Source: Planotetraspora phitsanulokensis (GTDB lineage Bacteria > Actinomycetota > Actinomycetes > Streptosporangiales > Streptosporangiaceae). From it: a stretch of DNA of 64,000 nt. Made by a program: the position numbers and the translations under genes. This document shows positions 56,335-64,000 of this stretch, in pieces. The number at the start of each line of letters is the position of its first letter. The stretch's first letter is position 1. The notes under the pieces were generated by a model. The model was not told the origin of the DNA. It did no database searches and was given only the letters and a program-made list of their open reading frames with translations. Where the stretch lies: assembly GCF_016863295.1 (NCBI RefSeq), contig NZ_BOOP01000019.1, positions 186,001-250,000 of the forward strand, in the 5' to 3' direction.

Positions 56335-57201
56335 TTGACGAGTTTCGTGAAGGCTCATGACGGACGGACGCTGGCAGTCGACGAGAGGGGTGAGCCCGAC
56401 GGGAGCCCGGTCTTCCTGTTACACGGCACACCGGGGAGCAGGCTGGGGCCGTTTCCGCGCGCGTCGGTCCTCTATCGGCTCGGCATCAGGCTGATCAGCT
56501 ACGACCGGCCCGGATACGGCCTGTCCGACCGGAGGAGGGGCCGTACCGTGGCGGACGCCGCGGCGGACGTGGAGGCCATCGCCGACGCCCTGCACATCGA
56601 CTCCTTCGCGGTGATCGGCCGCTCCGGAGGGGCCCCGCACGCGCTGGCCTGCGCCGGACTGCTGCCCGAGAGGACGACGCGGGTGGCCGCCCTCGTTCCG
56701 CTGGCGCCCCGGGAGGCCGAAGGGCTGGACTGGTTCAACGGCATGACGCCGTCCAACGTGATCACGTACAAGGCCGCGGAGACCGGTCACGCCGCCATGA
56801 TGGAACTGCTCTCTCCCGACGCGGAGCAGATCCGAGCGGATCCGACCCGGCTCGTGCCCGCCCTCGACGACGACCTTCCCGAGCCGGACAGGTACGTCAT
56901 GGCGGACTTCGGAATCCGCATGATGCTCGCTCTCAATTTCGCGGAGGCCGTACGGACCTCGGCGGCGGGGTGGGTCGACGACGCGCTCGCGTTCAGCTCT
57001 CCATGGGGATTCCAACCGGCGGACATCTCCGTACCGACGCTGTTGTGGCACGGGGACGAGGACGTGTTCTCACCCGTCGACCACTCCCGCTGGCTCGGCC
57101 GGCAGATTCCCGGGGCCCACGTGGTCATTCAGGAGGGCGCCGCGCATTTCGGCGCCCTCCGCGTCATGCCCGACGTGCTGTCCTGGCTGTCGGCCGCCTG
57201 A
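56335..57201 (+). CDS. Alpha/beta-fold hydrolase
   Basis: A 288-residue alpha/beta hydrolase. It has FLLHGTPGSRLGPFP (oxyanion HGTP), LISYDRPGYGLSDRR, the elbow FAVIGRSGGAPHALACAGLL with the nucleophile in GRSGG, an unusual but family-consistent elbow, the acid in TLLWHGDEDVFSPVDHSRWL and the His in IQEGAAHFGALR. The helical cap is residues 130-195. Actinomycete copies of this type are proline iminopeptidase-like or esterase-like; the substrate is unknown. TTG start with GGGGAGG upstream. It is convergent with the FxsT-type gene, with 2 bp between the stops. Confidence 0.88.
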   Translation: MTSFVKAHDGRTLAVDERGEPDGSPVFLLHGTPGSRLGPFPRASVLYRLGIRLISYDRPGYGLSDRRRGRTVADAAADVEAIADALHIDSFAVIGRSGGAPHALACAGLLPERTTRVAALVPLAPREAEGLDWFNGMTPSNVITYKAAETGHAAMMELLSPDAEQIRADPTRLVPALDDDLPEPDRYVMADFGIRMMLALNFAEAVRTSAAGWVDDALAFSSPWGFQPADISVPTLLWHGDEDVFSPVDHSRWLGRQIPGAHVVIQEGAAHFGALRVMPDVLSWLSAA

Positions 57202-57203
57202 CC

Positions 57204-60200
57204 TCAGAACGGCTGCGGCTCGATGTCCCTGTTGGTCCGCCGCCACTCCCTGAGATAGGTCAGGGTCGGGTGGCCGTCGCCCAGGATCCGGCCGTTGACG
57301 GGGAGCAGGCGAGCGCGGATGCGCTCCGCCTGGGTGGTCCGTCCGCTGGACCACAACGTCACCGCGAGGTTGGCCTCGCAGGCGAGTGTGTCCGGGTGCG
57401 TGTCGCCGAGCTTTTCGCGGAGACCCTCGAGGGTCTGTCGTTCCAGCGCCTCGGCCTCCGGGAGGCGTTGCTCGTCGGCCAGACAGTTGGCGAGATTGAT
57501 CGCCGCCGACAGGGTGAAGGGATGATCCTCCCCCAGGTGGGAGCGCAGCCCTTCGTACGATGTCCTCGCGATGCTCTCCGCCCTGTCGGTCTCGCCGGTT
57601 CCGCGCAGGTAGATCGCCAGGTTGTTCAGAGCGATATACGTCCCCGGATGGCTTTCGCCCAAAGTGTCCCGATAGATGCGGGCGATCTCGTCCGCCAGAT
57701 CTCGCGCGCCCGCCTTGTCGCCCAAAGCGGACATGCAGGAGGCGAGCTCGAGCCGCGCCGCGAGTGCGTCAGGGGTGCCCGCGTACCGCTGCGTGTACCT
57801 CTCGTCCGTGTCCTTCGCCAGGTTCCACGCCTCCTGCTGCTCCCCCGCCCTGCGGAGCGAGACGGCGAGGCTCTTGGCCGCCCGCAACGTGTCCACGAAG
57901 GACTCGCCGAGTGACTCCCGATAGAGCTGCAGGGTTGTCCGCAGGAGGTCCACCGAATCGCGGTAGAGGCCGATCTCACGCAGGTCGCGAGCCAGCTGGG
58001 CGGCGGAGAACAGGGTGTAGGGATGGTTGTTGCCGAGCACCCTCATGCGGCGCTGGCGGGTGTCGTGGTCGAGGTCGCGCGCGCTCGCGGCGTCGCCGAC
58101 CAGCCGGTGGCACGTCGCGAGGTTGTTGGCCGAGGAGAGGGTACGCGGGTGGTCCTGGCCGAACAGCGTCTTCCACTGCTGATAGGTCACCCGGTCCAAC
58201 TCCAGCGCGCCCTGGTAGTCGCCGAGACCGCGCAGGTCGGCGCCGAGCCCGCCGGCGGTCATCAGCGTGTGCGGGTGGCGCTCCCCGACGACCTCGAGTT
58301 GCTGCTCCCGGACCCATTCGTCGAGGTCGCGCGCCTCCTCGTACTTGCCCTGCGAGCGCTTGACGTTCGCCACGTTGAACAGCAGGTGGAGCCGCTGCCT
58401 GTCGTGGATGCCGAACACGTCCTCCCAGAAGTTCGCGAGACGGTCGCCCAGCGCGAGGGCGCTGTCGAAGTCGCCGCGCTTCCAGAGGTACCGCACACGG
58501 TCGGTGAGCAACTGCCGGGTCTCCTCCTCCGTGCACTCGGTCGCACGGGAGGGCTGCAGGTGCTGCCAGATCAGGTCGTAGCGGATCCAGTTCTCCGGGT
58601 CGTCGACGTCGCCCTGACGCGGCCTCGCGCCCACGAGGATGCGATGGACCTCATGACAGGCCTGGACCTGCTCCTCCTCCGTCATCTGGCTGCGGATGAC
58701 CGCCTGCACCAGCCGGTGCACCTGAATCGTGTTGTTGGCCTGGTCGGCCTTGGCCAGGGCGAACCTGCCGATCTCCTGGATCACCCGGCCGAGGACCAGC
58801 TTCTCGCGCAGGGTGTCGTCGTACGGGAGCAGCGACTCCGTCATCTCATCGCTGTACAGGAGCTGCATCGAGATCGGCTCCGGCGCGAAGAAGGCGCACA
58901 GCTGGAGCAGACGCACCGAGGCGGGCGAGCTCTCCTGGAGCTGCCCGAGCGACAGGTTCCAGGTGACGGCGACCGGGTGGGGATAGTCGGCCGGCTGGCT
59001 CAGGGACAACACCCGGGCCGCCTCCGTCTCGAGCTGCTCCAGGAAGGTCGCGGCGGGGATGCCGGTCTCCGCCAACCACGCGGCGGCCTGCTCGACGGCG
59101 AGCGGCAGGTTCCCCAGGGCCTCGGCGACCCGGATCGCCTCGGACGGAGCCAGCCCCGGCACCCGGCGGCTGAGGTGCTCCAGGCTCTCCTCCTGGCTGA
59201 AGACGTCCACCTCGAGAGGTGCCGCAACGGCCGACCACGCCTGGTTGCGCGAGGTGATCAGGATGTGGCCCGAGGAGCCGCCGGGGAAGAACCCCCTCAG
59301 GTCATCGGGATCACCGGCGTTGTCGAATATCAGCAGCCACCGGCCGTACGGCTCGCCCAGGCGCAGGGACTCGCGGACGGCGGCGACGACTTCCGCGATG
59401 TTGTCGGCGACCGGGATGTGCAGCTGACGGGCCAGCTCCTCGAACGCCGCGTTGATGCGTTCGCGATCCTCTGACGAGATCCACCAGACCAGGTCGTAGT
59501 CGGCGCGGAAGCGGTGGGCGTACTCCAGCGCCACCTGCGTCTTGCCCACCCCGCCCAGGCCGTAGAGCGCCTGTGGGAGGACCACCGCCGAACTGCCGCC
59601 TACCAACTGGTCGCGCAGCTCGTCGAGGACGGCCCCTCGTCCGGTGAAGACGGCGTTGCGGTCGGAGACGTTCCAGACCACGGGCACGCTTCCGGGGTAG
59701 CGGGCTCCGAGCCCCGCCGTGTCCAGCGCCTGCCCCTCATCCGTCCGGCCGAACGCCTTGAGCACCCGCTCAGCGGCCGAGCGCTCGGAGATCCTGGTGA
59801 GATCGGAGAGCGCGCGGTCACCGAAGGGCGAGGGGAAGTGCGATTCGGACACGCGGATCGGGATCAGCTCGCCTCGGACGGCGCCCTCGGCGTTGGTGAG
59901 CCACTGCCAGACCTCCTGGCTGCGCGAGGAGCGGACGTAGGCGTCGGAGAGCACCACGACCGTGCGGGGCGCGTCGCCCGCGAAGTCCATGGCGTCGTCG
60001 GAGTCGACCTCGCGCAGGGTCACCCGGTAGCCGTAACGGTCCAGCAGGGCGGCGATCCAGTCCGTCCACATCCGGTCCTTCGACGTGTAACTGAGGTAGA
60101 CGTCGGTCGTGTGTGTGGGGTGACGGCGGGTGAAGGTGTCCAGGTAGCGGATCCGGGTGGGCTCCTCGAGGGGAGGGAAGGAGGTGACCTCCCCCTCGGT

Positions 60201-61094
60201 GATCATGCCGGTCAGCCGTTCGAAGGCCGCGAGTATCGAGCTGGGCCGGTTCGGTTCGTCGCCGAAGGTGGCCAGGATCTCCTCGAAGGCGTAGAAGGGC
60301 ATGTACGGGATCTCCACCGCACCCCAGTACTGGTCGAGCTGCTCCTGGATCATCCCGCGCGGGAACTTGTCGAATTTACGCTTGGCCAGACTGCGTCCCG
60401 CGTCGCATTTCTCCTTCTCCCCCGTCTCGATGCGCATGGGGACGGGCAGGATGCGGATGTTGCGGTCGCCGTAACGGTCGTCGATGTGGCGCGCCACCGA
60501 GGAGGTCCCCTCGATGCCCTGGTCGGACAGGGTGAAGCAGGCCACGAGGACGTCGGGCATCTGGACGGTGCAGATCTCCGCGATGTCGCTCAATCCGGTG
60601 CGGCTGTCGATCAGCACGTAGTCGTAGCAGGCCTTCATGTCCTCGCGCAGCGCGTCGAAGAACTGCCCGCCGCCCTGGCGCTCGTAGAAGGTGTCCCAGT
60701 CGAACCCCGAGACCAGGGAGGAGTAGTCGCGGTTCTGCCGGCCGGCCGAGATGAAGTCGAGCGTTCCCTCACCGGGGAACTCGAAGTCGAGCGACACGGC
60801 ATGCGGTTCGACCCGCGCGTACTCCCGGTGCCACTCGCGCGATCGGACCTCCCGTTTCATCGCCGCCCACTGGTAGGTCGTGATGAGGTCGATGACTCCC
60901 GAGGTGGTCGCCACCAGCCCGCTGTCCAGGAACGGCCGGTAGAACTTGTGCAGGCCGGGTGACTCCAGGTCCCAGTCGACGACCAGGACCCGCTTGCCGC
61001 TGCTGGCGAGGATCCACGCCGTGTTCGCCAGCGCCATCGTGCGTCCGGTGCCGCCTTTGTACGAGTAGAAGGTGACGATCCGGCCCTCGCTCAT
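57204..61094 (-). CDS. FxSxx-COOH system ParA-TIR-NB-ARC-TPR protein (FxsT)
   Basis: A 1,296-residue STAND-like protein. Residues 1-300 are a ParA/MinD-like ATPase: IVTFYSYKGGTGRTMALANT has the deviant Walker A KGGTGRT, and VLVVDWDLESPG and DYVLIDSRTGLSDIAEI follow the P-loop. Residues 331-445 are a TIR domain (VYLSYTSKDRMWTDWIAALL) in which the usual catalytic Glu position is Val (RSQEVWQW; E394-V395). Residues 480-760 are NB-ARC, with the P-loop YGLGGVGKTQVALEYAHRF and GNLPLAVEQAAAWLAETG. Residues 800-1290 hold TPR repeats of about 42 residues (LADEIARIYRDTLGESHPGT, LETLREKLGDTHPDTLACEA-type). This architecture matches the FxSxx-COOH tetratricopeptide protein. It is directly downstream of fxsC (stop TAG overlaps its ribosome-binding site). 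Confidence 0.88.
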   Translation of the reverse strand: MSEGRIVTFYSYKGGTGRTMALANTAWILASSGKRVLVVDWDLESPGLHKFYRPFLDSGLVATTSGVIDLITTYQWAAMKREVRSREWHREYARVEPHAVSLDFEFPGEGTLDFISAGRQNRDYSSLVSGFDWDTFYERQGGGQFFDALREDMKACYDYVLIDSRTGLSDIAEICTVQMPDVLVACFTLSDQGIEGTSSVARHIDDRYGDRNIRILPVPMRIETGEKEKCDAGRSLAKRKFDKFPRGMIQEQLDQYWGAVEIPYMPFYAFEEILATFGDEPNRPSSILAAFERLTGMITEGEVTSFPPLEEPTRIRYLDTFTRRHPTHTTDVYLSYTSKDRMWTDWIAALLDRYGYRVTLREVDSDDAMDFAGDAPRTVVVLSDAYVRSSRSQEVWQWLTNAEGAVRGELIPIRVSESHFPSPFGDRALSDLTRISERSAAERVLKAFGRTDEGQALDTAGLGARYPGSVPVVWNVSDRNAVFTGRGAVLDELRDQLVGGSSAVVLPQALYGLGGVGKTQVALEYAHRFRADYDLVWWISSEDRERINAAFEELARQLHIPVADNIAEVVAAVRESLRLGEPYGRWLLIFDNAGDPDDLRGFFPGGSSGHILITSRNQAWSAVAAPLEVDVFSQEESLEHLSRRVPGLAPSEAIRVAEALGNLPLAVEQAAAWLAETGIPAATFLEQLETEAARVLSLSQPADYPHPVAVTWNLSLGQLQESSPASVRLLQLCAFFAPEPISMQLLYSDEMTESLLPYDDTLREKLVLGRVIQEIGRFALAKADQANNTIQVHRLVQAVIRSQMTEEEQVQACHEVHRILVGARPRQGDVDDPENWIRYDLIWQHLQPSRATECTEEETRQLLTDRVRYLWKRGDFDSALALGDRLANFWEDVFGIHDRQRLHLLFNVANVKRSQGKYEEARDLDEWVREQQLEVVGERHPHTLMTAGGLGADLRGLGDYQGALELDRVTYQQWKTLFGQDHPRTLSSANNLATCHRLVGDAASARDLDHDTRQRRMRVLGNNHPYTLFSAAQLARDLREIGLYRDSVDLLRTTLQLYRESLGESFVDTLRAAKSLAVSLRRAGEQQEAWNLAKDTDERYTQRYAGTPDALAARLELASCMSALGDKAGARDLADEIARIYRDTLGESHPGTYIALNNLAIYLRGTGETDRAESIARTSYEGLRSHLGEDHPFTLSAAINLANCLADEQRLPEAEALERQTLEGLREKLGDTHPDTLACEANLAVTLWSSGRTTQAERIRARLLPVNGRILGDGHPTLTYLREWRRTNRDIEPQPF

Positions 61095-61096
61095 CG

Positions 61097-62311
61097 CTAC
61101 TCCTCTGGCCCGATCAGCCGGGGTCTGTCGACTCTCGCGCCCTCAGGGGGGTAGGCGGGCGCGTGCTTGAAGTACTGCTGGGTCGCCTTGTGCAGGGCCT
61201 CGGGCAACAGGCTCCTGAACGACTCGAGGCTCCGCACGTCCGTCTCGGCCGCCGGCTCCGCCAGTTTGTGCCCGAGAGCGTCCCTGAGATGTCCCTTCAG
61301 CCGCGGCTCGTGCTCGACGGTCTCCTGGTCGTCGCGGTTCCACGGCACCATGACGGAGATCCACTGCCGTCCTGGCCGGTTCACCGACCGCAGCGACTCC
61401 TGGCACTCCTCCTGTGTGGTGGCCCAGGGATCCACGAGCATCACCCCCGGAGACTGAGGGGTCTCCGCCGCGAGTCCGCCGCCGTGATCCTCGAGGGTGC
61501 CGACGTCGGGCAGGAAGCCGCGGGACCGTGCCACATCCACCGCGCAGTCGGCGAGCGGGCGCATCCCGTTGCGGCTTCGGAACGGGTCCCATTCGTACGG
61601 CGTGCGCCCGTAGTGGTAGGCGTCCCGCCCCTCGGGCAGGTGACGCAGGTCGGGGGCGACGACGGTGACGGTCACCGGGCGTTCCGGCATGTGGTCGGTG
61701 AACGCGCTCGGCACGGCCGTGTAGTCGCGGACCTTGCCGTACGGCATGGGCGACGACTCGGCCACCTCGATGATCCGCTGGGCCAGGCCCATGGTCGCCG
61801 ACTGGTACTGGTTCCGGTACTTGCTGAGCTTCATGATCCCGTAGAAGCCCTCGTCCGCGTAGCGGGAGCCGAGGTCGGAGTGGTTGAACTGGATCGCCTG
61901 GGCTGCTCTCGGCAGGGTCATCGTCCGCATGGGGGCCCAGATGGCCGGCACGATCGCCACCGGCCCGGTGTGGCCCGGGACGCGTTCGAGAAAGGCCGCC
62001 CATTCCTTGCCGCAATGCACGCTCTCGAAGTAGCGCGGCGAGTACAGGGGGACGAAAACCCGGCAGCTCGAGAGGCGTTCGGAAAGCATCTGGGGCCAGT
62101 TGTCGCCGACGCGTAATTCCCGGTCCATATAGCCGGCCGATCCGGCGGGCACCCGGGTCAGATGCATGATGTGCTCACAGAGCACCTTGAACAGCTTCTC
62201 CACCCATTGGTTGGGATCGCCCGCGTCCGTGAGGTCGTAGGGCGGCACGTGCGCGTAACTCAGGAAGAAGTACGGCCCCGTGGGCTGTGCCGAGGGCTGG
62301 GGACTCGCCAT
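61097..62311 (-). CDS. TIR-like protein FxsC
   Basis: A 404-residue protein of the FxsC type. Residues 12-150 are TIR-like: PYFFLSYAHVPPYDLTDAGD is the first strand, and RVFVPLYSPRYFESVHCGKE, WAAFLERV is the region that in TIR NADases holds the catalytic Glu: here C100-x-x-E103 is intact. Residues 160-210 (AIQFNHSDLGSRYADEGFYG) complete that domain, and residues 220-404 are the FxsC-specific C-terminus (VTVTVVAPDLRHLPEGRDAY, GVMLVDPWATTQEECQESLR, WISVMVPWNRDDQETVEHEP). It may form NAD-degrading or signalling assemblies with the FxsT-type protein; this is inference. GGAGG lies just before ATG 62311, and the gene is 85 bp after the fxsB stop. Confidence 0.88.
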   Translation of the reverse strand: MASPQPSAQPTGPYFFLSYAHVPPYDLTDAGDPNQWVEKLFKVLCEHIMHLTRVPAGSAGYMDRELRVGDNWPQMLSERLSSCRVFVPLYSPRYFESVHCGKEWAAFLERVPGHTGPVAIVPAIWAPMRTMTLPRAAQAIQFNHSDLGSRYADEGFYGIMKLSKYRNQYQSATMGLAQRIIEVAESSPMPYGKVRDYTAVPSAFTDHMPERPVTVTVVAPDLRHLPEGRDAYHYGRTPYEWDPFRSRNGMRPLADCAVDVARSRGFLPDVGTLEDHGGGLAAETPQSPGVMLVDPWATTQEECQESLRSVNRPGRQWISVMVPWNRDDQETVEHEPRLKGHLRDALGHKLAEPAAETDVRSLESFRSLLPEALHKATQQYFKHAPAYPPEGARVDRPRLIGPEE

Positions 62312-62341
62312 CCGCCTCCTTCCGGGCTTTCACTATAGAAA

Positions 62342-62367
62342 CACGGCCTTTGCGAGAAAAGGCCGTG
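62342..62367 (-). terminator. Hairpin between fxsB and fxsC
   Basis: CACGGCCTTT and AAAGGCCGTG, a 10-bp stem over a 6-nt loop, 30 bp after the fxsB stop. On the minus strand TTTCTATAG follows. It could cut transcripts after fxsB, or act as a partial terminator that sets fxsB above fxsCT. Confidence 0.6.
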
Positions 62368-62396
62368 ATCGAGAAACCCCGGAAAAAGTGTGGGTC

Positions 62397-64000
62397 CTAC
62401 TGCGCGCCCGACTTCGCTCGATGCCGTTCCGCCAGCTCCGCGGCCATGGCCGTCGCCTCAGCCGGAACCGGCTCCGCGAGCCAGGGCTCCACGGATCGCC
62501 GCATCCCGGCCACGAACCGCGTGCCCAGAGGCGTGAGTGCCTGCGACCCGGTGAGGGAGTCGATCGCGTCGGCGGTGTGCTTGCGCCACAGCGCGAACTG
62601 AACCTCAGGCCGGCCGCCGGCGGCGCGTCGCCGCGCTCTCCAGAAGTCGGAGACCGCCAGGTGGGCGTATGTGCCCTGCAGGAGACCCTCGAGCGGGCGG
62701 AGGTCGGGACGCCAGGGCGCGTAGTAGAGGCCCGCGTGCCCCCGGTCGTACAGGTCGACCATGTCGAGGACGGCTCCCAGCTTGACGTGCTGGAACTCGT
62801 GCATCAGCAGGAGGGCGAGCGTGGCCGGGTCCTCGGGCAGGGCGATGGCGACGGACCCGAACGCGTGCCTGGCCGCCGAACTGACGTCGCCACCGGCCGA
62901 GGGAGGGGCGAGTGGGACCACGGTGGACAGGGCGGCGCGCAACCCCGCCGCGTAGTCGGGGTGGTCCGTCTCGATCAGCGTCCAGGCGACGCTGAACGCC
63001 CGCTGCCACGCGTCGGCTTCCTCCTCGGACAGCCTTCCGGCCACCGGGTGACCGTGGCTGTGGCGGTGCGGATCGGTGTCCTCCAGCACGACGGTGAACC
63101 CGTTCGCCTCGAGCGTCCGCACCGGATGCCAGACGGCGTCCGGATGCCCCACGAGCGTGAACCGCTCGTCCTTCACGAGCAACCGGCCGTCGGAGCCCGG
63201 CGCCGCTTCGAACGCGCCCAACGTGGGGAGGTGGAACACCCCGTCCACGTCCTGCAGCACGATCTCCGCGTCGACGCCCGCCCTGACGGCGGCCGCTGCC
63301 GCGATATTCGCGAGGTAGCCGAGATGCCCCCCGCCGGTCAGGCACCGGGCGGCCCACTCCCTGACGTACGGATGGTCCAGCACCGTGTCGACGGCGCCGC
63401 GGTGTTCCGCGTCGAGCCGGGTCAGCAGGTCCCATCCGTCCGCGGCGGAGCCATGGGTGTGCACTCCGGCCAGGAGCCCGCGGCGCAGTGTCCGCTGTCC
63501 CGCGAGAAGGTGCTTCATGTCGGCCTCGCCGCCGTGCCCGGCGGCGAGTGCCTCGATCGTGTCGTTCGGCAGGGCGTGCGTTGGCATGGCGATCCTGTGC
63601 CTGACATGAGTGATGAGCTTGAGGAGATCGGCCGAGTAGACACTCGGATTCGCGAAGGCGGAGCCCGTCCGGTAGCGGTGCGCGTACAGGCCGCCGCCGC
63701 AACTGTCGACGACCGGGCACGCCCGGCACGTGTCGCACAATCCGCCGAGCCCCTGCTGCCGGGCCAGGATGCCGGTGTGGGCGGCCACGGCGTCGAGGTC
63801 GTCGGTGACGACGTTCAGCCCGGTCGAGGGCGCCCCGTCGAAGGCGACCTTCAGGGAGTCGGCCTGCTCGTAGGCCCCGTCCGTCTCGATGACGACGAGG
63901 TCGGTCGGTTCGAGGCCGAGCGACTCGGTGAGGCTGGACTCTCCCCGGCTGGTGCGCAGGATGGACTCGAACATGCGCACCGGCACCCTGGCCCCCTCTT
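62397..64000 (-). CDS. FxsB-type radical SAM/SPASM protein with HExxH extension, 5' end beyond the window
   Basis: About 534 residues of the C-terminal part are visible; the radical SAM core with its CxxxCxxC motif lies beyond the right edge, as the frame continues unbroken to 64000 (EGARVPVRMFESILRTSRGE). The SPASM region has the auxiliary-cluster Cys motif GLCDTCRACPVVDSCGGG (63690-63745). The rest is the HExxH extension: LALLLMHEFQHVKLGAVLDM (HEFQH at 62787-62801, intact), then LYYAPWRPDLRPLEGLLQGT and YAHLAVSDFW. Fusions of radical SAM and HExxH domains in this family are reported to form cyclophane crosslinks and beta-hydroxylate residues of FxsA peptides. The precursor fxsA should lie just to the right. 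Confidence 0.88.
   Translation of the reverse strand, partial: EGARVPVRMFESILRTSRGESSLTESLGLEPTDLVVIETDGAYEQADSLKVAFDGAPSTGLNVVTDDLDAVAAHTGILARQQGLGGLCDTCRACPVVDSCGGGLYAHRYRTGSAFANPSVYSADLLKLITHVRHRIAMPTHALPNDTIEALAAGHGGEADMKHLLAGQRTLRRGLLAGVHTHGSAADGWDLLTRLDAEHRGAVDTVLDHPYVREWAARCLTGGGHLGYLANIAAAAAVRAGVDAEIVLQDVDGVFHLPTLGAFEAAPGSDGRLLVKDERFTLVGHPDAVWHPVRTLEANGFTVVLEDTDPHRHSHGHPVAGRLSEEEADAWQRAFSVAWTLIETDHPDYAAGLRAALSTVVPLAPPSAGGDVSSAARHAFGSVAIALPEDPATLALLLMHEFQHVKLGAVLDMVDLYDRGHAGLYYAPWRPDLRPLEGLLQGTYAHLAVSDFWRARRRAAGGRPEVQFALWRKHTADAIDSLTGSQALTPLGTRFVAGMRRSVEPWLAEPVPAEATAMAAELAERHRAKSGAQ

What the first reader, a model, noticed from the sequence alone, without database searches (positions are those of the whole stretch)
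57204..64000. FxSxx-COOH peptide system at the window edge: maturase, TIR-like protein and a ParA-TIR-NB-ARC-TPR giant
Three genes on one strand encode an FxsB-type radical SAM/SPASM-HExxH maturase, FxsC and an FxsT-type protein. The set is known by name but, to my knowledge, no biological role has been shown. It pairs a crosslinked ribosomal peptide with TIR and STAND domains that in other bacteria work in immunity and signalling. The maturation product of FxsA may be the ligand of the STAND protein, giving a sensor or defence switch with a peptide messenger.
Basis: partly seen in the sequence, partly recalled or inferred. Interest (0 to 1): 0.8.

Follow-up and report, generated by a model that had tools for sequence, protein, structure and literature searches.

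The report
Peptide-linked bacterial NLR-like gene island
This is a known but functionally unexplained bacterial gene set that makes a small, probably crosslinked peptide next to an immune-receptor-like protein and a probable NAD-cleaving enzyme, and comparison with relatives points to an overlooked fifth gene and to features that make its role testable.

Summary
fxsT, fxsC and fxsB lie on the minus strand, and the missing peptide gene fxsA lies 14 bp upstream of fxsB, just outside the window, ending AFNSSI-COOH.

What I add. (1) An alpha/beta-hydrolase gene (56335-57201), tail-to-tail with fxsT, looks like a fifth component: in 76 of 80 FxsC loci; in 150 related genomes, in 29 of 29 with FxsC over cut-off and 2 of 121 without. 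(2) The five genes behave as one replaceable island. (3) The catalytic-glutamate motif is kept in 89 of 89 FxsC TIR domains but only loosely in FxsT. (4) Where FxsB keeps HExxH, FxsA has Ala two residues before Phe in 39 of 39, against 4 of 41 where it is lost. (5) SLATT/SLOG-like genes often neighbour the operon in relatives, not here.

Best model: the matured FxsA C-terminus is the ligand of FxsT, which controls FxsC as NADase. Inferred; no activity is shown.

The parts
56335..57201 (+). alpha/beta-hydrolase, 288 aa, convergent to fxsT (stop codons 2 bp apart); proposed fifth component. Predicted triad Ser97 (56623-56625), Asp243 (57061-57063), His271 (57145-57147)
   Evidence: Pfam Abhydrolase_1 66.7 bits; homologue in 76 of 80 named FxsC loci and 0 of 10 short-FxsB loci; triad residues kept in 105-106 of 106 sequences, some of them copies of one genome; hits of 326 bits or more in 29 of 29 genomes with FxsC over cut-off and 2 of 121 without
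57204..61094 (-). fxsT, 1296 aa: ParA-like ATPase - TIR - NB-ARC - TPR
   Evidence: NF040586 1060 bits, NF047398 151 bits, TIR_2, NB-ARC, TPR_10/TPR_12
60483..61082 (-). FxsT ParA-like domain with variant P-loop KGGTGRT (usual Lys replaced by Arg)
   Evidence: KGGTGRT in 30 of 30 FxsT; NF047398 'KGGVGR-motif variant AAA ATPase'
59790..60101 (-). FxsT TIR domain; catalytic-Glu position only loosely kept in the family (Glu394 present in the window's own protein)
   Evidence: TIR_2 54 bits; alignments; with the linker the least conserved part of FxsT
59160..59627 (-). FxsT NB-ARC (STAND NTPase) domain with Walker A and B motifs
   Evidence: PF00931; GxGGxGKT and FDNA in the 30 aligned FxsT
57273..58517 (-). 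FxsT TPR superhelix, about nine kinesin-light-chain-type repeats; proposed peptide-binding groove
   Evidence: TPR_12 and TPR_10; model pLDDT mostly 90-98 over this part; helix A conservation 0.754 against helix B 0.537
61097..62311 (-). fxsC, 404 aa: TIR domain plus a second alpha/beta domain (TIGR04276)
   Evidence: NF040588 193 bits, TIGR04276 139 bits; model pLDDT 82.1
62003..62005 (-). FxsC Glu103 codon, predicted NADase catalytic Glu (CGKEW)
   Evidence: G[KR]EW motif in 89 of 89 FxsC; aligns, at weak E-values, with the Glu of the C..EL motif of plant TIRs
62397..64000 (-). fxsB, 3' part; the gene runs to 64688 outside the window (763 aa, radical SAM/SPASM plus HExxH domain). The peptide gene fxsA, 57 aa, ending VAAFNSSI-COOH, follows outside the window at window-equivalent 64703-64876(-) = G000:C19:250703-250876 = L003:10703-10876
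   Evidence: TIGR04269 582 bits, TIGR04267 173 bits on the full gene from L003, TIGR04268 27.0 bits for fxsA
62787..62801 (-). FxsB HExxH motif (HEFQH, residues 630-634)
   Evidence: HExxH intact in 41 and lost in 42 of 83 distinct FxsB

Best explanation
A five-gene standalone FxSxx-COOH island that most likely works as an intracellular, peptide-licensed NLR-like switch. FxsB crosslinks Phe to the residue two places on in the C-terminus of FxsA (chemistry established for related enzymes, inferred here). Its aKG-HExxH domain then hydroxylates, or oxidatively cuts at, the Ala two residues before that Phe, freeing a short hydrophobic cyclophane peptide (inferred). The KLC-like TPR groove of FxsT reads this C-terminal ligand or its absence (inferred). 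The NB-ARC switch, with the variant ParA and degenerate TIR domains of FxsT, assembles FxsC, whose intact TIR cleaves NAD+ (inferred from the catalytic motif). The output is NAD loss or an ADP-ribose-type signal; in relatives carrying the SLOG-like/SLATT pair this would open a membrane pore. The alpha/beta-hydrolase convergent to fxsT is a constant partner, perhaps the enzyme that trims or destroys the peptide and so sets the threshold. Shown here: gene content, linkage, island behaviour, motif conservation. Not shown: any activity, interaction or phenotype.
For: Linkage: 70 of 80 FxsC loci hold FxsA, B, C, T and the hydrolase; six of the ten exceptions (L110, L136, L146, L158, L159, L171) lie at contig ends. 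Profile hydrolase/FxsC 29 of 29 against 2 of 121, Fisher p 6e-29; the 326-bit limit was set afterwards at a gap (next hit 243 bits), and genomes are related, so p is a guide only. FxsC TIR: Foldseek's first hits are plant NLR TIR domains, RUN1 on top (best E 1.4e-3), and the catalytic-Glu motif is in 89 of 89 (alignment). ParA P-loop altered in 30 of 30. TPR inner helices conserved; Foldseek's nearest are APPBP2 with a C-degron and KLC1 with cargo or C-terminal peptides. Ala at F-2 goes with HExxH (39 of 39 against 4 of 41), and HEXXH enzymes PosC/PflC cut peptide backbones at Ala (PMC12636437, passages). SLATT_3: 7 of the 12 genes found in 150 genomes lie within 1 kb of a long-FxsB match. Island swap in a congener.
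Against: No experiment. No SLOG-like or SLATT gene was found beside the window operon, and no SLATT_3 in its genome. In FxsT the position nearest the catalytic Glu is acidic in 23 of 30 and 25 of 35 sequences, and the window's own FxsT has Glu there, one residue out of register with FxsC: a residual FxsT activity is not excluded. Ala and HExxH status change few times on the tree (5 and 4 changes; 2 independent pairs on well-supported branches, not significant), and position F-1 carries more mutual information with HExxH status than F-2 (0.92 against 0.76). The characterised relative ChlBH hydroxylates Asp and His. TPR helix A is commonly better conserved than helix B (recalled), so a conserved groove is weak evidence. 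No FxsC Foldseek hit reaches E 0.001. L071 has FxsB, FxsT and hydrolase but no FxsC or recognised FxsA, and the hydrolase also sits beside a lone NB-TPR gene in G014.
Confidence: 0.38

Rival explanations
1. FxsT itself senses an invader (phage or other) and the matured peptide is the effector: a toxin or amplifying signal made in parallel, as suggested in 2020.
For: Kaur et al. 2020 (PMC7159879, passages) propose 'peptide toxin or signal'; island behaviour and SLATT neighbours fit a conflict system.
Against: The TPR part is conserved (mean top-residue frequency 0.647, helix A 0.754) where a direct pathogen sensor would be expected to vary fast; of the recurrent neighbour families that I annotated none is an exporter, though some recurrent families were not annotated.
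Confidence: 0.2
2. The set is an intercellular or developmental signal: the matured peptide is exported and re-read by FxsT in neighbours, controlling growth or differentiation.
For: FxsT resembles the NB-ARC/TPR regulator AfsR (64 bits); the named hosts are actinomycetes; an AAC(3)-fold acetyltransferase gene in 35 of 80 loci could cap a released peptide.
Against: No exporter among the neighbour families that I annotated; patchy distribution (FxsC over cut-off in 29 of 150 order genomes) and the island swap suit an accessory module better than core development.
Confidence: 0.2
3. An ordinary RiPP cluster making an antibiotic, with FxsT/FxsC as regulator and self-protection and the hydrolase as resistance or maturation enzyme.
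For: Radical SAM cyclophane chemistry is a RiPP hallmark (NCBIfam names; PMC11002830 passages).
Against: The core is short and nearly constant across genera, which is unlike diversifying antibiotics; a TIR with an intact catalytic motif would be an odd immunity gene.
Confidence: 0.15

Closest known systems
FxSxx-COOH systems (NCBIfam TIGR04268, TIGR04269, NF040586, NF040588/TIGR04276); 'standalone peptide-processing systems' of Kaur et al. 2020, PMC7159879
   Same: Peptide, radical SAM/SPASM maturase and a TPR STAND protein with a ParA-like domain that the paper calls inactive
   Different: In the passages seen (not every place shown, figures not held) no alpha/beta-hydrolase is named as partner of FxSxx systems; the HExxH domain is read there as a peptidase, now as an aKG hydroxylase; a split between a catalytic (FxsC) and a degenerate (FxsT) TIR is not stated there
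Thoeris (TIR ThsB plus SLOG- or macro-type ThsA; PMC11204291, start of abstract in listing)
   Same: A TIR with catalytic motif, in many relatives next to a SLOG-like protein and a membrane effector
   Different: No ThsA-like gene recognised here; the trigger would be a peptide-reading STAND protein; the effector in relatives would be SLATT
Plant TIR-NB-ARC receptors
   Same: TIR, NB-ARC and repeat domains; FxsC TIR most similar in fold to RUN1
   Different: The catalytic TIR is on a separate protein, the receptor's own TIR is degenerate, the repeats are TPR, and a maturase and its peptide are in the same operon
Fused radical SAM/aKG-HExxH maturase ChlBH (Morishita et al. 2024, not held; described in PMC12636437 passages)
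   Same: Same domain fusion as FxsB
   Different: ChlBH hydroxylates Asp and His; FxsA of HExxH-intact loci offer an invariant Ala before the cyclophane motif

Membership tests
FxSxx-COOH system | Peptide gene ending F-x-S-x-x-COOH beside the maturase gene | tested here: met
   fxsA ends AFNSSI, 14 bp upstream of fxsB; the family profile gives 27.0 bits against a cut-off of 28
FxSxx-COOH system | FxsB radical SAM/SPASM above curated cut-off | tested here: met
   TIGR04269 582.5 bits, cut-off 370
FxSxx-COOH system | FxsC and TPR protein FxsT above cut-off | tested here: met
   NF040588 192.9/130, TIGR04276 139.2/55, NF040586 1059.9/300
FxSxx-COOH system | Cyclophane crosslink on FxsA | not testable with these tools
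   Known for related enzymes (PMC11002830 passages)
TIR NADase (FxsC) | Catalytic Glu in the C..E[LW] motif | tested here: met
   89 of 89, aligned to the plant TIR Glu at weak E-values
TIR NADase (FxsC) | NAD+ cleavage | not testable with these tools
   Needs an enzyme assay
TIR NADase (FxsT) | Catalytic Glu conserved | tested here: inconclusive
   Nearest position: Glu 15, Asp 8, other or gap 7 of 30; Glu 19, Asp 6, other or gap 10 of 35 (the two sets share genomes). The window's FxsT has Glu394 there, one residue out of register with FxsC
Thoeris | ThsA-type effector (SIR2-SLOG or macro/TM) beside the TIR gene | tested here: not met
   No such hit among the genes scanned; no homologue of the SLOG-like protein in the L003 locus; no SLATT_3 in the genome. 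SIR2 and macro families were not searched genome-wide
Known anti-phage systems in PADLOC | System models recognise the proteins | tested here: not met
   Only partial hits: PDC-M28B to the ParA part of FxsT, pVip to the radical SAM part of FxsB, none to FxsC
STAND/NLR-type switch | NB-ARC Walker A/B motifs plus sensor repeats | tested here: met
Serine alpha/beta-hydrolase (fifth gene) | Ser-Asp-His triad | tested here: met
   Ser97 105/106, Asp243 106/106, His271 106/106; substrate class (peptidase, esterase) not tested

The most novel reading that the evidence does not exclude
A bacterial NLR that reads a post-translationally crosslinked endogenous peptide: FxsB oxidatively cuts FxsA at an invariant Ala, releasing an N-blocked cyclophane peptide that binds the FxsT TPR groove through its free C-terminus; FxsT then recruits a separate catalytic TIR (FxsC) by its own degenerate TIR, and a dedicated serine hydrolase turns the signal over. 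Invaders would be sensed by disturbing the radical SAM/2-oxoglutarate-dependent supply of that peptide (a guarded self-signal), with NAD loss or a SLOG/SLATT pore as output.
Probability: 0.15. Interest if true: 0.92.

Novelty: new member of a known kind. Interest (0 to 1): 0.6.

Why it matters
FxSxx-COOH systems occur in many actinomycetes (FxsB over cut-off in 92 of 150 order genomes), and my searches of the open library brought up no demonstrated role. A constant fifth gene, an apparent division of labour between two TIR domains, an Ala position that goes with the HExxH domain, and SLOG-like/SLATT neighbours turn a vague 'sensor or toxin' idea into single-residue predictions (FxsC E103, FxsB HExxH, FxsA Ala, hydrolase S97). 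If right, bacteria have an NLR-like receptor for a crosslinked ribosomal peptide.

Tried and rejected
Rejected: that the four genes alone are the unit (hydrolase linkage). Rejected: that the TIRs of FxsC and FxsT are under equal constraint. Considered and not adopted: the alpha-lytic-protease-like gene near 37 of 80 loci, seen only among loci L136-L182, so plain synteny is possible. Short-FxsB 'type II' loci (10 examined) have an HExxH homologue in another frame or gene, a shorter FxsT without the ParA hit, no FxsC hit and no hydrolase hit; no FxSxx peptide was found just upstream of fxsB there; not pursued. Ala(F-2) against HExxH loss: strong in raw counts, not significant with independent pairs. 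Plasmids: four records with FxsC, not followed up. The hydrolase's nearest solved relative is 9wlv, deposited as pimeloyl-ACP methyl ester carboxylesterase (234 bits); this gives no substrate. The profile of full-length FxsC found no PDB sequence at E 0.1.

Data handling: 91 distinct loci remained after removing identical copies from 111; counts (FxsT) were made before that step or on overlapping sets. FxsA was recognised in 80 of 83 distinct loci with a usable FxsB (not in L071, L134, L146). For L089 the script picked a wrong frame; I replaced it with the frame printed. FxsC loci are the best 80 of 401 relatives. In one search only 6 candidates per genome were scored. In one search three genomes (G025, G038, G126) have FxsC-like hits under the cut-off; they are counted as without FxsC and have no hydrolase hit at E 1e-40.
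Full report
What is there. The window is bases 186001-250000 of a 277,532-base contig; the nearest named loci are Planotetraspora (FxsC 93% identical), so the host is probably a Planotetraspora. On the minus strand lie fxsT (57204-61094), fxsC (61097-62311) and fxsB (62397-64688, cut by the window edge at 64000). All score above curated NCBIfam cut-offs. The contig beyond the edge shows fxsA, 57 aa, ending VAAFNSSI-COOH, 14 bp upstream of fxsB. It falls one bit short of the TIGR04268 cut-off (27.0 against 28), but frame, place and C-terminus fit; of 11,151 frames in 41 loci 47 end F-x-S-x-x, and by my count 22 of these are the frames upstream of fxsB.

How typical it is. In 150 genomes of the same order the FxsB family exceeds its cut-off in 92 and FxsT in 128. 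Two forms exist. The 31 best-scoring FxsB, in 30 genomes, are long (692-825 aa, with the HExxH extension): FxsT lies on the same strand in 30 of 31, FxsC in 29 of 31, the hydrolase in 30 of 31. A strict FxSxx peptide frame lies upstream of fxsB in 22 of 31; eight more have a variant end (FQASI in five, FSNFV, FNSAIG, FNSSLPPRD) and in one (L071) I recognised none. The other form has a short FxsB, a separate HExxH homologue and a shorter, convergent FxsT; ten such loci were examined and none gave an FxsC or hydrolase hit. A scan of named genomes with an FxsC alignment found 401 relatives, of which the best 80 were analysed: FxsT in 78 of 80, FxsB radical SAM part in 74 of 80 (two of them fragments at contig ends), and all five genes in 70 of 80. 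Of the ten incomplete ones, L110, L136, L146, L158, L159 and L171 lie at contig ends; L111, L134, L169 and L179 are real or unexplained exceptions, L169 being an FxsC without any of the others.

A fifth gene. The alpha/beta-hydrolase gene at 56335-57201(+), tail-to-tail with fxsT, has a close homologue in 76 of 80 named loci. In 68 it is convergent to fxsT (median gap 17 bp, range -31 to 2130); in eight Streptomyces loci, which form one group on the FxsB tree, it lies upstream on the operon's own strand, so linkage survived a rearrangement. By contrast the other flanking genes tested recur only within the genus. In the same 150 genomes hits of 326 bits or more occur in 31 genomes: all 29 with FxsC over cut-off plus G014 and G070; the next hit is 243 bits (Fisher p 6e-29, relatedness ignored and limit set at the gap). 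Weaker hits down to E 1e-40 bring the number of genomes to 40. G070 has FxsB and FxsT without FxsC (L071); in G014 the hydrolase is convergent to a lone NB-TPR gene, and in G145 two hydrolases are each convergent to an FxsT or a shortened FxsT. The hydrolase therefore follows FxsT most closely. The predicted triad Ser97, Asp243 and His271 is kept in 105 to 106 of 106 sequences and mean column identity over 35 sequences is 71%. NCBIfam has no specific name for it (best 59 bits against a cut-off of 256). In the passages of Kaur et al. 2020 that I saw, alpha/beta-hydrolases are paired with caspases or listed among effectors of other systems, not with FxSxx systems (one search shows 12 of 15 places, figures not held).

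A replaceable island. Four of the five Planotetraspora genomes held carry the locus at the same site. In the fifth (G104) the flanks align with ours at 77-90% identity, but window 56126-65383 (hydrolase through the region upstream of fxsA) is replaced by 5.66 kb without alignment at E 1e-10, in which Pfam recognises a sigma factor, an epimerase and a DUF4132 protein. G104 has its own fxs set plus hydrolase on another contig, with FxsB 51% identical to ours.

Two TIR domains with different fates. All 89 FxsC in the distinct-locus set keep the Y-F-...-G-[KR]-E-W motif. A profile of the FxsC TIR aligns this Glu with the Glu of the C..EL motif of plant TIRs L6/L7 and RUN1, at weak E-values (0.1 to 1.2); Foldseek ranks RUN1 TIR structures first for the FxsC model (E 1.4e-3, none at 1e-3 or better). 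In FxsT the nearest position is Glu in 15 and Asp in 8 of 30 sequences, Glu in 19 and Asp in 6 of 35 in an overlapping set, otherwise another residue or a gap; the window's own FxsT has Glu there, one residue out of register. The TIR, with the linker, is the least conserved part of FxsT. The ParA domain has KGGTGRT in 30 of 30. NB-ARC motifs are kept. I infer that FxsC is the main enzyme and FxsT the switch and scaffold; a residual FxsT activity is not excluded.

The receptor groove. FxsT residues 320-1296 were modelled (mean pLDDT 86.3; TPR part mostly 90-98). Over nine repeats, helix A columns have a mean top-residue frequency of 0.754 and helix B 0.537. The sensor is thus not hypervariable, which suits a constant ligand; part of this contrast is normal for TPRs (recalled). 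Foldseek's closest chains are APPBP2 bound to an RxxGP C-degron and KLC1 bound to cargo or C-terminal peptides. FxsA has exactly four residues after Phe in 78 of 80 loci, and the last residue is Leu, Ile, Val or Phe in 78 of 80.

Maturation. FxsB's HExxH is intact here (HEFQH) and in 41 of 83 distinct FxsB, and lost in 42. Ala stands two residues before the Phe in 39 of 39 FxsA from intact loci and 4 of 41 from loci that lost it; position F-1 (Ala in 32 of 39; Thr, Ile or Ser in 40 of 41) separates the groups even better. The tree needs only four changes of HExxH status, and independent pairs are too few for significance. In PMC12636437 (passages) the fused maturase ChlBH hydroxylates Asp and His, while HEXXH enzymes PosC and PflC cleave the backbone oxidatively at an Ala. 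I therefore propose, as a hypothesis, hydroxylation or scission at that Ala.

Neighbours in relatives. SLATT and a SLOG-like protein each occur in 48 of 80 loci in several orientations. Most of these are Streptomyces and may partly be plain synteny; among the 36 loci whose titles name Streptosporangiaceae genera, SLATT is present in 10. The SLOG reading rests on weak profile hits to DprA (E 0.0067) and YpsA (E 0.17) and on sequence pattern; Pfam gave no hit. In 150 genomes, 7 of the 12 SLATT_3 genes lie within 1 kb of a long-FxsB match (chance about 1e-23 for 2.5 kb under independence and an assumed 7.6 Mb per genome). SLOG-containing Thoeris effectors are activated by cADPR isomers (PMC11204291, start of abstract in listing), and SLATT was predicted to be a nucleotide-responsive pore (PMC7159879 passages). 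The window's genome has no SLATT_3 match. An AAC(3)-fold acetyltransferase gene, between fxsB and fxsC where both are present, occurs in 35 of 80 loci, not here.

Prior art. 'FxSxx-COOH' occurs in two papers of the library, one of which is Kaur et al. 2020, which describes standalone systems of this type and suggests that the peptide is a toxin or signal. Searches for FxsA/FxsB/FxsC and for FxSxx, SjiB, FxsT listed 20 of 94 and 15 of 54 papers, none about this system by title and abstract start; subscription papers such as Morishita et al. 2024 are not held. I found no experimental role.

Verdict. A complete member of a named family whose function is open. The new and checkable parts are the fifth gene, the TIR difference, the Ala/HExxH link and the SLOG-like/SLATT association.

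Noticed in passing
L120:9123-9965, L144:9120-9923, L139:9100-9924 and others: AAC(3)-fold (PF02522) acetyltransferase gene between fxsB and fxsC in 35 of 80 loci; the five scanned fall below NCBIfam's AAC_3 cut-off; possibly acylates the peptide.
   Followed up: partly
L139:5039-6592, L104:5850-6311, L150 and others: SLATT 2TM effector and SLOG-like genes near the fxs operon in 48 of 80 loci each, in several orientations; absent near the window operon.
   Followed up: partly
G094:C23:555390-556584, G134:C23:268981-270155, G145:C67:36835-38003: Two FxsC TIR matches in tandem at one locus.
   Followed up: no
G145:C25:24229-24765, G134:C15:116166-116687: FxsC-type TIR inside a 947-948 aa open frame, perhaps a fusion.
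   Followed up: no
L003:14424-15464 (window-equivalent 68424-69464): Repeated stretches of about 190-350 bp in the right flank, seen as multiple overlapping alignments with Planotetraspora relatives.
   Followed up: no
L093-L102: Short-FxsB loci with separate HExxH homologue and convergent shorter FxsT; no FxSxx peptide found just upstream of fxsB.
   Followed up: partly
L139:3738-4958 and 36 other loci among L136-L182: Alpha-lytic-protease-like gene near the operon.
   Followed up: no
NCBIfam NF041717 hit of FxsT (34 bits, cut-off 1125): Another cyclophane RiPP family (Haa) also has a named TPR partner, HaaT, weakly similar to the NB-ARC part of FxsT: such pairing may recur.
   Followed up: no
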